From Capillimicrobium parvum (GTDB lineage: Bacteria > Actinomycetota > Thermoleophilia > Solirubrobacterales > Solirubrobacteraceae): a DNA stretch of 64,000 nt. The stretch lies in assembly GCF_021172045.1 (NCBI RefSeq), contig NZ_CP087164.1:2232001-2296000 (forward strand), written 5' to 3'. Made by a program: the position numbers and the translations under genes. Below are positions 21,428-26,144 of the stretch, piece by piece; position 1 is the stretch's first letter, and every line of letters starts with the position of its first letter. The notes under the pieces are model-generated. The model did no database searches, was not told the DNA's origin, and worked only from the letters and a program-made list of their open reading frames with translations.

Positions 21428-21895
21428 ATGGACGTCCTCGTGCTCATCGACAAGCTGGACGACCTCGTCCACAACGCGAAGCCCGTGCCGCTCACGGATC
21501 AGGTTCGCGTGGACAAGGAGGAGATCTACGACATCCTCGACCAGATGCGCGCGACGATCCCCGAGGAGATCAAGCAGGCGCGCTGGATCGTCAAGGAGCG
21601 CCAGGAGATGCTGGCCGAGGCCAAGCGCGAGGCCGAGCGCATCGTCAAGGAGGCGCGCGAGCGCCAGGAGCGCCTGATCTCCCAGGAGGAGGTCACGAAG
21701 GCGGCCGAGCGCGCCGCCGAGGACATCATCGAGGACGCCCGCGCGCGCGAGCGTGAGATCCGCCTGGGCGCCGAGGACTACGCCGACGAGATCCTCAACA
21801 CGCTCGAGGTCAACCTCTCGAAGTTCATCGCCGCCGTCCAGCGGGGCCGCGAGCGCCTGCAGGGCAAGGACGAGCCGGCCGAAGTCGCGCGCTGA
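21428..21895 (+). CDS. SepIVA/DivIVA-like coiled-coil cell-division protein
   Basis: A 155-residue, highly charged, largely helical protein. It starts MDVLVLIDKLDDLVHNAKPV and continues with a long coiled coil (IKQARWIVKERQEMLAEAKR onward). In mycobacteria the DivIVA-domain protein SepIVA, essential for septation, is encoded just downstream of coaD and has the same opening. Neighbourhood and sequence therefore agree. A good AAGGAAG site lies 4 bases before the ATG. It probably localises to septa or poles and organises envelope synthesis. Confidence 0.75.
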   Translation: MDVLVLIDKLDDLVHNAKPVPLTDQVRVDKEEIYDILDQMRATIPEEIKQARWIVKERQEMLAEAKREAERIVKEARERQERLISQEEVTKAAERAAEDIIEDARAREREIRLGAEDYADEILNTLEVNLSKFIAAVQRGRERLQGKDEPAEVAR

Positions 21896-21939: not shown

Positions 21940-22206
21940 TCAGCCGACGTCGAACCCGCGCAGCCCCTCCGCGGGCTCGTCGAACACCTCCACGCGCTGC
22001 ACCTGGGCGCGCGGCGGCCCGGTCCGCACGAACTCGACCGCCTGCGACACCGCCTCCTGCGGTCCCTCGAAGACCGCCTCGACGGTTCCGTCGCCGCAGT
22101 TGCGCGCCCAGCCGGCCACGCCCAGTCGCGCCGCCTCCCGGCGCGTGCTGTCGCGGAAGAACACGCCCTGCACGCGGCCCGACACGATCACCCGGCGGCG
22201 CACCAT
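21940..22206 (-). CDS. acyP: Acylphosphatase
   Basis: An 88-residue acylphosphatase with the substrate-binding loop and catalytic Arg in GRVQGVFFRDSTRREA and the catalytic Asn in GWARNCGDGTVEAVFEG. It hydrolyses acyl phosphates in the cytosol. It follows the coiled-coil PD-(D/E)XK gene by 25 bases on the same strand and may be co-transcribed with it. ATG 22206 is chosen over the adjacent GTG 22209; neither has a clear ribosome-binding site. Confidence 0.93.
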   Translation of the reverse strand: MVRRRVIVSGRVQGVFFRDSTRREAARLGVAGWARNCGDGTVEAVFEGPQEAVSQAVEFVRTGPPRAQVQRVEVFDEPAEGLRGFDVG

Positions 22207-22231
22207 CACCGAAGGTGTACTGCGCCGCGGC

Positions 22232-23524
22232 TCAGTGCGCCTCCTCGTCCTCCGCGGGCGCGAGCAGCGCGTCGAGTTGCGCGAGGTGGCCGCGCACCGA
22301 GCTCGCCATCGCGTCGAGGATCGCCCGCGCCTGGTCGATGCCGTTCGTCGCGTTCGTCAGCTGCGACTTGACGCGGCGCACGTCCTCCATCGCCTGCAGG
22401 GCGCGCTCGACCTCCGCGCGCAGCGCCGCGGGGTCGAGCCCGCCGGCCTCGTCGCGGGCCATCAGCACCCGGGCGCGCGCCAGCCCGTAGGCCACCTCCA
22501 GCGCCAGCCGCGACCCCTCCTCGGGGTCGTAGACGACGAAGAGCTTGTCGCCGTTGTACTCGCGCAGCGGGTGCGTCCGCGCGGGCAGCTCGTCCTCGCT
22601 GGGCACCACGAGCACGCCGAAGTCCGCGCCGCGCGTCTCGATCGCGCCGTCGAGCTCGGCCAGCGCCTCGTTCTTCGACAGCTTGCGGTCCTTGGCCTCG
22701 AAGACGATCCGGCCGCGGGCCGGCCCCGCGCACGCGTCGATCGCCACGACGACGTCGCCCTTGCGCCCGCCCTGGCCGCGCACGTCGCCGACCGCGTCGC
22801 AGTCGTCGCCGCGCGCGACGGCCACCACGTCGAGCGCCTCGAACACCGCCTCCTCGTACGTGCGGCCCTTCGCCGCCCCGCGCTCCGTGACGTCGGCCAG
22901 CTCCTCGCGCTTGACCTTCTCGGCCCGCAGTTCGGCGAGCTGGATCTTCAGCGCGGTCATCTCGGCCGTCATCGCCCCCAGCCGCTCGGCCTGCTGGTCC
23001 GACGACTGCTTGATCATCGCCAGCGACGCCCGCTGGAAGCCGGCCAGGGGGTTGTTCTCCGCGTCGGAGGCGAACTGCTTGCGCAGGTCCTCGCGCATCT
23101 GGACGGCGACCTCGCTGACGACCGCCTGCACGCGGTGCTGCACCGCCACCGAGGACTCGTCGCCGAAGTGGCGCTGCAGAGCCCGCGTCACGTGCCCGTG
23201 CTCGGGCCCGAACGCCTCGTCGACCTTCTGGTCCAGCCGCTCGGCGACCCGCCGCGCGCGGTCGACGAACTCGGTCTCCAGCACCCGGGCCTGGCGCTCG
23301 AACTCCGCCTTGACGAACTCGACCTCCGACCCGGTCTGCTCGCGGTCGAGGACCCGGGCCCCGATCTCGATCATGTCCAGCAGCGCGCGCACGGGATCGC
23401 GGTGCTCGCGCACGAGCCGCACGGCCGCCTCGTCGACGACCTCGAGATCCTCGACGAGCACGCGCTCGCCGTGCACGCGGACGCGCGAAGCGAGGGCGAA
23501 GGGAAGGGGGGTGGCAGCCTCCAT
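22232..23524 (-). CDS. Coiled-coil protein with C-terminal PD-(D/E)XK nuclease-like domain
   Basis: A 430-residue protein of unknown function. Residues 60-215 are charged helices with heptad character (VKAEFERQARVLETEFVDRA, then AERLGAMTAEMTALKIQLAE). Residues 225-345 fit a PD-(D/E)XK fold: Glu-containing helix TYEEAVFEALD, then KGDVVV with Asp257, then IVFEAKDRK with Glu276 and Lys278. This layout resembles RmuC and DUF2130 proteins, which combine coiled coils with such folds. A second helical region ends the protein. It starts 10 bases after TACCTT and is divergent from the winged-helix gene at 23595. DNA cleavage or binding is inferred, not shown. Confidence 0.65.
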   Translation of the reverse strand: MEAATPLPFALASRVRVHGERVLVEDLEVVDEAAVRLVREHRDPVRALLDMIEIGARVLDREQTGSEVEFVKAEFERQARVLETEFVDRARRVAERLDQKVDEAFGPEHGHVTRALQRHFGDESSVAVQHRVQAVVSEVAVQMREDLRKQFASDAENNPLAGFQRASLAMIKQSSDQQAERLGAMTAEMTALKIQLAELRAEKVKREELADVTERGAAKGRTYEEAVFEALDVVAVARGDDCDAVGDVRGQGGRKGDVVVAIDACAGPARGRIVFEAKDRKLSKNEALAELDGAIETRGADFGVLVVPSEDELPARTHPLREYNGDKLFVVYDPEEGSRLALEVAYGLARARVLMARDEAGGLDPAALRAEVERALQAMEDVRRVKSQLTNATNGIDQARAILDAMASSVRGHLAQLDALLAPAEDEEAH

Positions 23525-23534
23525 TGCCCCTGCA

Positions 23535-23540
23535 AAGGTA
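23535..23540 (-). promoter_or_regulatory. -10-like TACCTT for the coiled-coil nuclease gene
   Basis: On the minus strand TACCTT lies 10 bases before the ATG at 23524. It faces away from TACGCT at 23583-23588, so 70 bases hold both promoters. Confidence 0.4.
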
Positions 23541-23582
23541 GGTGGAGGACCCGACGGAACGGCGGTTCGGCGGCCCCATCCC

Positions 23583-23588
23583 TACGCT
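23583..23588 (+). promoter_or_regulatory. -10-like TACGCT, leaderless start
   Basis: TACGCT lies 6 bases before the ATG at 23595. Confidence 0.45.
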
Positions 23589-23594
23589 CAGCCG

Positions 23595-24470
23595 ATGACG
23601 GCGCTCGACGACGCGCTGACCGAGCACGAGCCCGCTCCCGCGCGCCTGCGCGCGCTGCTGCACGCGGAGCTCGAGCTCGGCGTCCAGGAGCTGCGCCGCA
23701 AGCGCTCCGGCATCCCCGAGCCCGTGACGGTGGCCATCGGGCCGGGCCTGCTCGCCGTGGCGCCGGTCCCGGCGACCCTGCGGGCCGATCCACAGGAGGT
23801 CGAGGAGCGCAGCTGGCTGCTGGTCGCGGCGCTCGTCGGCTCCCTCGTCGAGGCCGGGGGCCGCGGTGTCCAGGCGGGCGATCACGACGGCCACCTACTG
23901 CTGGCGGCCGAGGCGGGGGACCCCGAGCTCGCCGCCCTCGCCTTCGACGAGCACGTGGCGCGCGTCGACCGGCTGCGCGCCCGAGCGGTCGTCCTGCCCG
24001 CCGGGGTGCTCGAGGCACACGAACCGCTGCGGCCGCCGGTCGGCGAGGCCCACCCGCTGCGCATCGCCGAGGCGATCGCCGCGCTCGGCGCGAACCCGGC
24101 CGACCCGCTCCAGGTCGCGGAGCAGGAGGATGCCGTCCTCGCCGCGCTCGCCGGCCCGGCCGCCGCGCCCCGGCCCCACGAGGATCCCGACCCCGACCGC
24201 CGGATCGCGCGGCGCATCGTCCAGCGCCTCGCCGGCATGGGAAAGTGGGGCGGCTACCACACCGAGTTCAGCCACCTCGCCCGCGGCTTCCACGGCAACG
24301 ACAAGCAGCTCGCCGAGGAGATCGGCGAGCGCCTCATCGCCTCCGGGCTGCTCGAGGAGAAGCTCAGCGTCGGTCAGCGCCACGTGTTCCTCAACCCGCG
24401 CCGCGCCCGCGACGTGTACGCGCTCATCGAGGAGGGCACGCTCCCCGCGGGCCTCGATCTGCGCAGATGA
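23595..24470 (+). CDS. Unknown protein with C-terminal winged-helix-like domain
   Basis: A 291-residue protein that I do not recognise. Residues 1-190 are rich in Ala, Leu and Glu, with short strands (EPVTVAIGPGLLAVAPVPAT) and no catalytic motif. Residues 200-285 look like a winged helix: RIVQRLAGMGKWGGYHTEFS, then GFHGNDKQLAEEIGERLIAS, then a wing EEKLSVGQRHVFLNP. It is divergent from the coiled-coil nuclease-like gene across 70 bases, with a separate -10 for each. It could be that gene's regulator or its functional partner. Transcript and protein should begin at the same base. Confidence 0.55.
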   Translation: MTALDDALTEHEPAPARLRALLHAELELGVQELRRKRSGIPEPVTVAIGPGLLAVAPVPATLRADPQEVEERSWLLVAALVGSLVEAGGRGVQAGDHDGHLLLAAEAGDPELAALAFDEHVARVDRLRARAVVLPAGVLEAHEPLRPPVGEAHPLRIAEAIAALGANPADPLQVAEQEDAVLAALAGPAAAPRPHEDPDPDRRIARRIVQRLAGMGKWGGYHTEFSHLARGFHGNDKQLAEEIGERLIASGLLEEKLSVGQRHVFLNPRRARDVYALIEEGTLPAGLDLRR

Positions 24471-24524: not shown

Positions 24525-26144
24525 ATGAACGTCCTCGATTCCGCCAGCCGCAAGCTGCAGACGGCCAAGACGCTGATCGAGGCGGGCGTGTTCCGGCCGG
24601 CGCGGCCCGACCGCCTGCTGCGCACCGGGCTCGCGCTCCGGCGCTGGGGTCCCACCGCCGCCGCGGGCTACACGACGTCGGCCATCCGCTACCCCGACGA
24701 ACCGGCGATCGTCGACGACCTCGGCTCGCTCACCTTCGCCGAGGTCCACCGCCGCACGAACGGGCTCGCCCACGCGCTCGCCGACCGCGGCCTGGGCGAG
24801 GGCGACAACGTCGCCATCCTCTGCCGCAACCACCGCGGCATCATCGACGTCACGGTGGCCTGCTCCAAGCTCGGCGCCCACGCGCTCTACCTGAACACGA
24901 TGTTCTCCGGGCCGCAGATCACCGAGGTGTGCGAGCGCGAGAAGCCGAAGGCGATCGTCTTCGACGAGGAGTTCACCGAGCTCGTCTCCGAGGCGGGCCG
25001 TCGGCGCAGGCGCTTCATCGCGTGGACCGAGGCGCAGTCCGAGGGCCGGCACGCCGACGAGCTGCTCGAGGACCTCATCGCGGGCGGCGACGCCTCCGAC
25101 GTCGTGCCGCCCGCCCGGAAGGGGCGCATCACGATCCTGACCTCCGGCACCACCGGCTCGCCGAAGGGCGCCAACCGCAAGCAGCCGGAGTCCCTCGAGC
25201 CGGTCGCCGCGCTGCTCGACCGCATCCCGTACCGCGCGCGCGAGCACACGCACGTCGCGGCGCCGATCTTCCACTCGTGGGGCTACGCGAACTGGATGCT
25301 GGCGATCAGCCTGTCCTCGACGGTCGTGCTGCGCCGGCGCTTCACGCCCGAGAGCTGCCTGAGCGCGACCGCCCAGTTCGCGTGCAGCGGCCTCGTCGTC
25401 GTCCCGGTGATGCTGCAGCGCATGCTCGAGCTGCCGGCCGAGATCATCGACCGCTACGACACCCGCGCCCTGCGCGTCATCGCGGCCAGCGGCAGCGCGC
25501 TCCCGGGCGAGCTCGCCACGAAGGTCATGGACCGCTTCGGCGACGTCCTCTACAACCTCTACGGCTCGACCGAGGTGGCCTGGGCGACGATCGCCACGCC
25601 CGCCGACCTGCGCGCCGCGCCCGGCACCGCGGGCCGCCCGCCGCGCGGGACCGTCGTCAAGCTCCTCGACGAGGACGGCGGCGAGGTGGGACCCGGCGAG
25701 ACCGGCCGCATCTTCGTCGGCAACGAGATGGCGATGGAGGGCTACACCGGCGGCGGGCACAAGCAGAACATCGGAGGCCTGCTGTCCTCCGGCGACGTCG
25801 GCCACTTCGACGAGGGCGGCCGCCTCTTCATCGACGGGCGCGACGACGAGATGATCGTCTCCGGAGGCGAGAACGTCTTCCCGCGCGAGGTCGAGGACTG
25901 CCTGGCCGCCCATGACGCGGTCGAGGAGGTGGCCGTGATCGGCGTCCAGGACGAGGACTTCGGCCACCGGCTCAAGGCCTTCGTCGTCGCTCGCAGCGAG
26001 GTCGGCGAGGACACGCTCAAGCGCCACGTCAAGTCGAACCTCGCCGGCTACAAGGTGCCGCGCGAGATCGTCTTCATGGACGAGCTGCCGCGCAACGCGA
26101 CGGGCAAGGTGCTCAAGCGCGATCTCGCCGACGAGCCCGCCTGA
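24525..26144 (+). CDS. AMP-dependent acyl-CoA synthetase
   Basis: A 539-residue adenylate-forming ligase. It has the P-loop-like motif LTSGTTGSPKGA, the aromatic/adenine motif YGSTEVAWATIATP, the hinge motif SGDVGHFDEGGRLFIDGRDD and the catalytic Lys in PRNATGKVLKRDL. It activates a carboxylic acid as acyl-AMP and then acyl-CoA; long- or medium-chain fatty acids are likely but the sequence does not settle this. TACATT at 24504-24509 gives a leader of about 8 bases. It is followed by the ribosomal yceD-rpmF block. Confidence 0.92.
   Translation: MNVLDSASRKLQTAKTLIEAGVFRPARPDRLLRTGLALRRWGPTAAAGYTTSAIRYPDEPAIVDDLGSLTFAEVHRRTNGLAHALADRGLGEGDNVAILCRNHRGIIDVTVACSKLGAHALYLNTMFSGPQITEVCEREKPKAIVFDEEFTELVSEAGRRRRRFIAWTEAQSEGRHADELLEDLIAGGDASDVVPPARKGRITILTSGTTGSPKGANRKQPESLEPVAALLDRIPYRAREHTHVAAPIFHSWGYANWMLAISLSSTVVLRRRFTPESCLSATAQFACSGLVVVPVMLQRMLELPAEIIDRYDTRALRVIAASGSALPGELATKVMDRFGDVLYNLYGSTEVAWATIATPADLRAAPGTAGRPPRGTVVKLLDEDGGEVGPGETGRIFVGNEMAMEGYTGGGHKQNIGGLLSSGDVGHFDEGGRLFIDGRDDEMIVSGGENVFPREVEDCLAAHDAVEEVAVIGVQDEDFGHRLKAFVVARSEVGEDTLKRHVKSNLAGYKVPREIVFMDELPRNATGKVLKRDLADEPA

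What the first reader, a model, noticed from the sequence alone, without database searches (positions are those of the whole stretch)
22232..24470. Divergent pair: coiled-coil PD-(D/E)XK protein and winged-helix protein
A 430-residue protein with coiled coils and a nuclease-like core (Asp257, Glu276-x-Lys278) is divergent from a 291-residue protein of unknown type with a C-terminal winged-helix. Each has its own -10 in a 70-base gap. The pair sits between housekeeping blocks and resembles RmuC/DUF2130-like DNA-maintenance proteins, but neither has a recognised function. It could act in DNA repair, in defence, or as an enzyme with its regulator. It is the best candidate here for an undescribed module.
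Basis: inference. Interest (0 to 1): 0.6.

Follow-up and report, generated by a model that had tools for sequence, protein, structure and literature searches.

The report
Damage-inducible coiled-coil nuclease beside winged-helix gene
The larger gene looks like an undescribed DNA-cutting repair enzyme switched on by a DNA-damage promoter it shares with known repair genes, while its divergent neighbour is a separate DNA-binding protein that only happens to sit next to it in some relatives.

Summary
In detail: a 430-aa protein (P1, 22232-23524, -) and a 291-aa protein (P2, 23595-24470, +) are divergent across a 70-base gap. P1 has a predicted PD-(D/E)XK core flanked by long helices; E224, D257, E276 and K278 are invariant in 29 aligned sequences. 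It is DUF2130-like, borderline by Pfam.

The pair is not a fixed module. In 99 genomes of the family both occur in 22, P1 alone in 11, P2 alone in 19, neither in 47; by genus there is no association. P2 sits just upstream of an acyl-CoA ligase gene instead.

The new result is P1's promoter. 63 of 72 distinct P1 upstream regions carry [CT][GA]TC[ACG]G-N10-TANNNT close to the start codon, none at other spacings, against 0 of 298 upstream regions of nine neighbouring genes. It is kept where P1 lies in other genomic places. It matches the published mycobacterial PafBC (RecA-independent DNA-damage) motif TGTCGG-N10-TA-N3-T. The same element precedes radA, recJ, RNase HI and dinB in these genomes.

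P1 is therefore most likely a damage-inducible repair nuclease. Remote archaeal relatives sit among defence genes. Enzyme activity, induction and presence of PafBC itself are untested.

The parts
22232..23524 (-). P1: 430-aa coiled-coil PD-(D/E)XK protein, DUF2130-related
   Evidence: intact ORF; homologues; fold
22520..22867 (-). predicted nuclease core of P1 (residues about 220-335; E224, D257, E276, K278)
   Evidence: alpha-beta-beta-beta-alpha-beta order in the model; all 50 PDB rows shown map within residues 204-376; invariant residues
22877..23395 (-). long helices of P1, residues 44-216 (predicted coiled coil)
   Evidence: model, block pLDDT about 50-90
22262..22432 (-). C-terminal long helix of P1, residues 365-421
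   Evidence: model; heptad-like hydrophobic period, peak 104 degrees
23535..23556 (-). PafBC-type promoter of P1: CGTCGG-N10-TACCTT, ending 10 nt before the ATG
   Evidence: 63 of 72 P1 upstreams, 0 of 298 control upstreams; 12 genome-wide sites against 2 control; published motif in PMC8151990
23583..23588 (+). leaderless -10 (TACGCT) of P2
   Evidence: TANNNT in this place in 33 of 38
23595..24470 (+). P2: 291-aa protein, N-terminal alpha/beta domain plus C-terminal winged helix
   Evidence: intact ORF; homologues; model mean pLDDT 92
24171..24470 (+). winged-helix domain of P2 (residues 193-291)
   Evidence: 22 invariant columns in 12 sequences of two bacterial families
21940..22206 (-). acylphosphatase gene directly downstream of P1, same strand
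   Evidence: reading frame; found in many relatives, sometimes between P1 and P2. Name by sequence recall, no family scan
24525..26144 (+). acsL: AMP-binding acyl-CoA ligase, next gene after P2
   Evidence: PF00501 E 1.8e-58; follows P2 in 35 of 37 loci

Best explanation
P1 is a DNA-damage-inducible repair nuclease. Single-stranded DNA from damage activates a PafBC-type WYL activator, which recruits RNA polymerase to the CGTCGG-N10-TACCTT promoter, so P1 rises together with radA, recJ, RNase HI and (in a relative) dinB. The protein assembles through its long helices (residues 44-216 and 365-421), and a PD-(D/E)XK domain between them cuts DNA with metal ions held by E224, D257 and E276 and with K278; by analogy with RmuC the coiled-coil arms hold or position branched or broken DNA while the core trims it. 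P2 is a separate winged-helix DNA-binding protein with its own leaderless promoter, most likely a transcription factor of the downstream acyl-CoA ligase / lipid gene row, and not an obligate partner of P1. Shown: promoter element and its co-occurrence with repair genes, predicted fold, invariant catalytic set, patchy pairing. Inferred: enzyme activity, substrate, induction, oligomer, the activator's identity, P2's targets.
For: Fold: alpha-beta-beta-beta-alpha-beta core; the PDB rows shown are mostly restriction, CRISPR-ancillary, EndoMS, McrC, Bax1 and Hjc nucleases or their RPB5/TIP26 relatives (best 8bao Z 9.8, rmsd 3.1, 120 aligned; 1xmx Z 8.7, 3.8, 122; 5gkj EndoMS Z 8.2, 3.6, 99). E224, D257, E276, K278, R298 invariant in 29 of 29; the E-D-ExK set is kept in 9 of 11 remote homologues aligned correctly, the other two having ExR. 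Promoter: 63 of 72 P1 upstreams with N10 spacing, 0 with N8, N9, N11 or N12; 0 of 298 control upstreams; offset to start codon 7-15 nt in the 41 strict ones; kept in all 7 non-syntenic f2/f3 loci examined with a full-length P1. Own genome: 12 sites against 2 for the reversed pattern, with start codons 7-11 nt downstream at P1, radA, recJ, RNase HI. In the 73 sites read, 51 lead an ORF of 90 aa or more; 21 of these 51 are P1 (5), radA (8), recJ (3), RNase HI (4), dinB (1) (Pfam-confirmed for 8 of the 16 non-P1 ones). Published PafBC motif TGTCGG/TGTCAG-10xN-TA-3xN-T (PMC8151990, passages) and a -26 element bound by PafB (PMC11804915, passages). Vertical inheritance: P1 identity tracks housekeeping identity, r = 0.86, n = 17 loci.
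Against: The first base of the element is mostly C where mycobacteria have T. The motif was first seen in these sequences and then tested, so the P1 count is partly post hoc; the repair genes and the published motif are independent. Over 15 genomes the bare pattern is only mildly enriched (71 against 44 reversed), 22 of 73 sites lead no ORF, and most of the other 51 lead no repair gene (cysteine-synthase-like, membrane proteins and others). recA was not among the 12 exact sites in the own genome. Presence of PafBC in this genome was not tested. P1 is absent from 66 of 99 family members, so it is dispensable. No activity data; Foldseek had no match below E 0.001.
Confidence: 0.7

Rival explanations
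1. P1 is a phage-defence nuclease. Its coiled coils sense or clamp invading DNA and the core degrades it; the damage promoter merely raises it during infection.
For: Full-length homologues (22-28% identity) on archaeal plasmids lie beside defence-like genes: AAA-VWA-MBL rows in Haloferax and Halobaculum rubrum, an AAA/ATP-binding/VWA row in Halobaculum litoreum, a QatC-like gene in Halobiforma, type III restriction genes in Methanomethylovorans. RmuC-domain ShdA defends Pseudomonas (PMC10270631, passages).
Against: In Solirubrobacterales family f1 P1 sits among housekeeping genes and is vertically inherited; no phage record holds it (0 of 50,697), one weak viral contig; PADLOC gives only E 0.012; neighbours scanned in f2/f3 are not defence genes.
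Confidence: 0.15
2. P1 and P2 are a functional pair: P2 is the repressor of P1, or both act together, from the shared 70-bp region.
For: Divergent and adjacent in this genome and in most genomes with both; genome-level co-occurrence Fisher p = 0.0005. P2 has a DNA-binding fold.
Against: Genus-level p = 0.40; P1 without P2 in 11 and P2 without P1 in 19 of 99; gap varies from about 60 to 1870 bp and contains another gene in 7 loci; no operator-like word upstream of P2, top 8-mer in 8 of 36 against a shuffle maximum of 11; P1 keeps its own promoter where P2 is absent.
Confidence: 0.1
3. P1 is not an active nuclease but a structural DNA-binding protein with a vestigial PD-(D/E)XK fold, as RPB5 is.
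For: RPB5 and TIP26, non-nuclease relatives of the fold (recalled), are among the structural matches.
Against: E224, D257, E276 and K278 are invariant in 29 of 29 sequences; a vestigial site should drift.
Confidence: 0.1
4. The element upstream of P1 is an ordinary promoter of this clade with no damage control.
For: Many sites lead non-repair genes; TANNNT is a general -10, also used by P2.
Against: 0 of 298 upstreams of nine neighbouring genes carry it; only 12 exact sites in 5.95 Mb, and of the eight with a close start codon four are P1, radA, recJ and RNase HI.
Confidence: 0.12

Closest known systems
DUF2130 (PF09903) proteins
   Same: Same region hit in 25 of 29 P1 relatives at E up to 1, best 1.8e-11; nuclease core of the same type
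   Different: P1 itself is under the cut-off (26.0 against 26.7 bits) and matches only profile positions 35-130 of 255; five of ten further proteins scanned exceed it. No functional paper found
RmuC (PF02646) and Shield ShdA
   Same: Coiled coil, PD-(D/E)XK core, second coiled coil, as described for E. coli RmuC (PMC1189080, passages); ShdA degrades DNA (PMC10270631, passages)
   Different: No RmuC match for P1, none among the families listed for its relatives, none in the own genome; no N-terminal membrane helix seen in P1; damage-type promoter
PafBC / RecA-NDp DNA-damage regulon of mycobacteria
   Same: Promoter grammar [C/T]GTC[A/G]G-N10-TANNNT, directional, near the start; DNA repair genes share it
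   Different: First base mostly C not T; a different, distant group of Actinomycetota; activator gene not looked for; recA not among exact hits
CRISPR-ancillary Card1/Can2 and VC1899 nucleases
   Same: Best structural matches of the nuclease core (8bao, 1xmx, 8q41)
   Different: They carry a ligand-sensing CARF domain (recalled, with the library description); P1 has a short beta-hairpin and long helices instead
NucS/EndoMS mismatch endonuclease
   Same: Core similarity, 5gkj Z 8.2, rmsd 3.6, 99 aligned
   Different: Similarity is limited to the common core; P1 has long helices instead of the EndoMS N-terminal domain (recalled)

Membership tests
PD-(D/E)XK nuclease superfamily | alpha-beta-beta-beta-alpha-beta core | tested here: met
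   predicted, block pLDDT about 85-92 over residues 261-350; structural matches
PD-(D/E)XK nuclease superfamily | E ... D ... E-x-K catalytic set | tested here: met
   E224, D257, E276, K278 invariant in 29 of 29
PD-(D/E)XK nuclease superfamily | metal-dependent cleavage of nucleic acid | not testable with these tools
   needs an assay
DUF2130 (PF09903) | score above the curated cut-off | tested here: inconclusive
   P1 26.0 against 26.7; 5 of 10 relatives and remote homologues scanned pass
RmuC (PF02646) | match to the RmuC profile | tested here: not met
   no RmuC row for P1 at E up to 1; none in the own genome while 4 of 14 control genomes ring
RmuC (PF02646) | coiled coil - nuclease - coiled coil order | tested here: met
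   model helices 44-216, core, helix 365-421, compared with PMC1189080
PafBC-type regulon | TGTCRG-N10-TANNNT-like element at the start of the gene | tested here: met
   strict form with C or T first 41 of 72, wider form 63 of 72; controls 0 of 298
PafBC-type regulon | other members are DNA repair genes | tested here: met
   radA, recJ, RNase HI, dinB among the genes led by the element
PafBC-type regulon | a PafBC activator in the genome | not tested
PafBC-type regulon | induction by DNA damage | not testable with these tools
   needs expression data
Known anti-phage systems (PADLOC) | clear match of either protein to a defence model | tested here: not met
   P1 E 0.012 only, P2 none
Winged-helix DNA-binding proteins (P2) | wHTH fold | tested here: met
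   predicted; best 4asn TubR Z 8.7, rmsd 2.8, 81 aligned. No Pfam family for P2

The most novel reading that the evidence does not exclude
P1 founds a distinct, previously unnamed family of coiled-coil PD-(D/E)XK nucleases shared by Bacteria and Archaea: in Solirubrobacterales a RecA-independent, PafBC-controlled repair nuclease with a substrate no other regulon member handles, in haloarchaea and methanogens recruited as the cutting part of mobile defence islands (AAA-VWA-MBL, Qat-like and type III restriction rows).
Probability: 0.35. Interest if true: 0.75.

Novelty: new variant of a known kind. Interest (0 to 1): 0.6.

Why it matters
It would extend the RecA-independent damage response, worked out in mycobacteria, to a distant soil lineage of Actinomycetota, and would add a nuclease of unknown substrate to it. 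The DUF2130-type nucleases have no assigned function in the papers searched (three and one papers, seen as listings only); a promoter that names the pathway makes the question testable. It also links a housekeeping repair enzyme with relatives placed in archaeal defence islands.

Tried and rejected
Divergent-pair module: rejected as an obligate unit. P2 as regulator of P1: no operator-like word above shuffles upstream of P2. RmuC membership: profile not met. Defence call for the window's own P1: not supported by PADLOC or context, kept as a rival. LexA-type control was not scanned for. N-terminal domain of P2: alpha-beta order seen in the model, but the structure rows cover only the winged helix, so its fold stays unassigned; no further model was allowed. 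Sequence-profile search of solved structures: no credible match for P1 (best E 0.96) or P2. Other long ORFs over the locus (e.g. 562 aa at 22206-23894) are regarded as high-G+C artefacts, since homology lies in the P1 and P2 frames. PADLOC for the remote homologues themselves: only weak rows.

A row of alignment A5 (L217, genome G356) and the G356 row were wrong open reading frames chosen by my scripts; both are left out of every count. The gene finder in my scripts was a crude codon-position heuristic; it was used only to choose neighbours for family scans. The count of acsL after P2 leaves out the broken P2 of L090 and the f2 locus L104, and includes loci where P2 is cut by a contig end.
Full report
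What is there. P1 (22232-23524, -) and P2 (23595-24470, +) are intact, divergent and 70 bases apart. The window lies at 2,232,001-2,296,000 of a 5.95-Mb one-contig genome; relatives named are mostly Solirubrobacterales (Solirubrobacter, Svornostia, Conexibacter, many MAGs). The locus is a row of housekeeping genes, dak2-recG-rsmD-coaD-coiled-coil gene, then acylphosphatase and P1 leftward, then P2-acsL-DUF177-rpmF-plsX-acpP-rnc rightward (most names recalled from sequence, Pfam-confirmed for coaD and acsL).

P1, the protein. An alignment of 29 sequences (relatives 36-80% identical to P1) gave a model with mean pLDDT 77.8: a beta-hairpin (15-29), long helices 44-216, a core of helix 223-237, strands 241-245, 257-261, 272-277, helix 284-298, strands 302-307 and 327-331, then a helix 340-357 and a long helix 365-421. 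VIA-align rows span residues about 220-357 and are mostly PD-(D/E)XK nucleases or their known relatives: 8bao Z 9.8 (rmsd 3.1, 120 aligned), 2czr 8.8 (2.8, 97), 1xmx 8.7 (3.8, 122), 6ut7 McrC 8.2 (3.8, 133), 5gkj EndoMS 8.2 (3.6, 99); Foldseek alone reached E 0.005 at best. E224, D257, E276, K278 and R298 are invariant. Pfam DUF2130 is hit by 25 of 29 at E up to 1; P1 is 0.7 bits under the cut-off, 5 of 10 further proteins scanned are above it.

Range of P1. 33 of 99 family genomes, 41 of 299 class genomes, 9 of 326 phylum genomes, three of them outside the class. tblastn found 9 of 72,556 plasmid records, seven haloarchaeal, one methanogen, one Nostoc, eight of them over at least 80% of P1; none of 50,697 phage records. 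A profile of the 29 matched the plasmid proteins with E 1e-18 to 1e-46 at an assumed database of 100,000, through the N-terminal hairpin, nuclease and C-terminal helix; the catalytic set is kept except K to R in the Nostoc protein and in G184. I read the surroundings of all nine plasmid records: five have defence-like neighbours (Haloferax, Halobaculum rubrum, Halobaculum litoreum, Halobiforma, Methanomethylovorans), Halosegnis has a PD-(D/E)XK/helicase pair, Natrinema resembles Halobiforma by layout only, Salinigranum and Nostoc show nothing telling.

The pair. In the 99 family genomes both genes occur in 22, P1 alone in 11, P2 alone in 19, neither in 47; Fisher p = 0.0005 by genome but 0.40 by genus (9, 5, 3, 4 genera). 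Some genomes are fragmented drafts, so a few absences may be assembly gaps. Where both were seen on one contig they are in the same slot, but in seven Solirubrobacter loci the acylphosphatase gene lies between them (L094, L095, L203-L207). P2 is followed on the same strand by acsL in 35 of 37 f1 loci with P2 (mostly within about 20-110 bp, two with a larger aligned gap), and by DUF177 in the other two (L201, L209). P1 occurs in families f2 and f3 at other places without P2.

The promoter. Comparing P1 upstream regions showed a repeated word. Over 72 distinct 60-base upstreams, [CT]GTC[AG]G-N10-TANNNT is in 41 and the wider [CT][GA]TC[ACG]G-N10-TANNNT in 63; spacings 8, 9, 11 and 12 give none; nine control genes give 0 of 298 (P2 40, coaD 40, rsmD 38, recG 25, plsX 40, acsL 47, DUF177 45, rnc 14, dak2 9). 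In the strict ones the -10 ends 7-15 nt before the start codon. The nine P1 upstreams without it are L081, L084, L085, L088, L128, L179, L180, L188, L190. All seven non-syntenic f2/f3 loci checked carry it. In the window it is 23535-23556 (-), CGTCGGGTCCTCCACCTACCTT.

The regulon. The pattern YGTCRGG-N9-TANNNT has 12 exact sites in the own genome, 2 for the reversed pattern. Eight have an ORF of 90 aa or more starting 7-11 nt downstream: P1, radA, recJ, RNase HI, a cysteine-synthase-like gene, two membrane proteins and one doubtful frame. In 14 relatives plus the own genome, CGTCRGG-N9-TANNNT gave 71 sites against 44 reversed, so the bare pattern is noisy. I read the 73 sites together: 22 lead no ORF; of 51 that do, 5 are P1, 8 radA, 3 recJ, 4 RNase HI, 1 dinB, and 1 scpA; the other 29 are mixed or unidentified. 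Pfam confirmed 2 radA (AAA_25 plus the zinc ribbon), 3 recJ, 2 RNase HI, 1 dinB and scpA; the other radA and RNase HI rows rest on reading the N-termini. The published M. tuberculosis PafBC motif is TGTCGG-10xN-TA-3xN-T with TGTCAG as a variant, and its direction matters (PMC8151990, passages). PafB binds a -26 element and PafBC is activated by ssDNA (PMC11804915, passages); the RecA-NDp promoter extends beyond mycobacteria (PMC8223512, passages); PafBC was tied to this pathway in M. smegmatis (PMC5656591, PMC6789036, passages). The spacing and direction here are the same; the first base differs.

P2. It has no Pfam, NCBIfam, PADLOC or PHROGs family. The model (pLDDT 92.1) has an alpha/beta N-terminal domain and a C-terminal winged helix matched by TubR, CymR, MarR-type and similar proteins. 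The winged helix with the motif SVGQRH is shared with a second family of the class (f5) in 10 genomes, where the gene lies near enolase, a DivIC-type gene and DUF501; the f5 genomes named have no P1. P2 has a conserved leaderless -10 (33 of 38) and no damage element (0 of 40). A transcription factor is the likeliest role; its target is unknown.

Mechanism and rivals. The best account is a damage-inducible repair nuclease, with coiled-coil arms as in RmuC (PMC1189080, passages). Defence is kept as a rival because of the archaeal relatives and of ShdA (PMC10270631, passages); CoCoNuTs (PMC11090510, passages) are other coiled-coil nuclease systems but McrBC-based. Searches found no functional account of DUF2130, COG4487 or of such a nuclease in Solirubrobacter within the held library; this says nothing about papers not held.

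Noticed in passing
window 21428-21895: A 155-aa coiled-coil protein (weak DivIVA and ATP-synthase-B hits) is 88-99% identical across the family, far above coaD (68-85%) beside it. It may be a SepIVA-like septation protein (recalled).
   Followed up: no
L227, L235, L236, L238: Haloarchaeal plasmids repeat a gene row AAA ATPase, VWA protein, MBL-fold protein and a P1 homologue, near UvrD/PD-(D/E)XK or PbeA-like helicases: a possible undescribed defence island type.
   Followed up: partly
L230:3279-6044, L234:4366-7131: A QatC-like gene (PADLOC E 1.4e-38 in L230) lies directly upstream of a P1 homologue in Halobiforma; Natrinema has the same layout.
   Followed up: partly
L106-L113: P2's winged-helix domain recurs in proteins of about 340 aa in another family of the class, near enolase, a DivIC-type gene and DUF501.
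   Followed up: partly
L090 (G018): P2 is broken into pieces with stops and acsL is missing from the same slot; the neighbours are otherwise present.
   Followed up: no
L245, L248, L250: Three non-repair genes of the own genome (cysteine-synthase-like, two membrane proteins) carry the same promoter element 9-11 nt before a start codon.
   Followed up: no
   Followed up: no
L119 (G027), L120 (G668): Broken or fragmented copies of P1 outside the usual slot, suggesting decay of the gene in some lineages.
   Followed up: no
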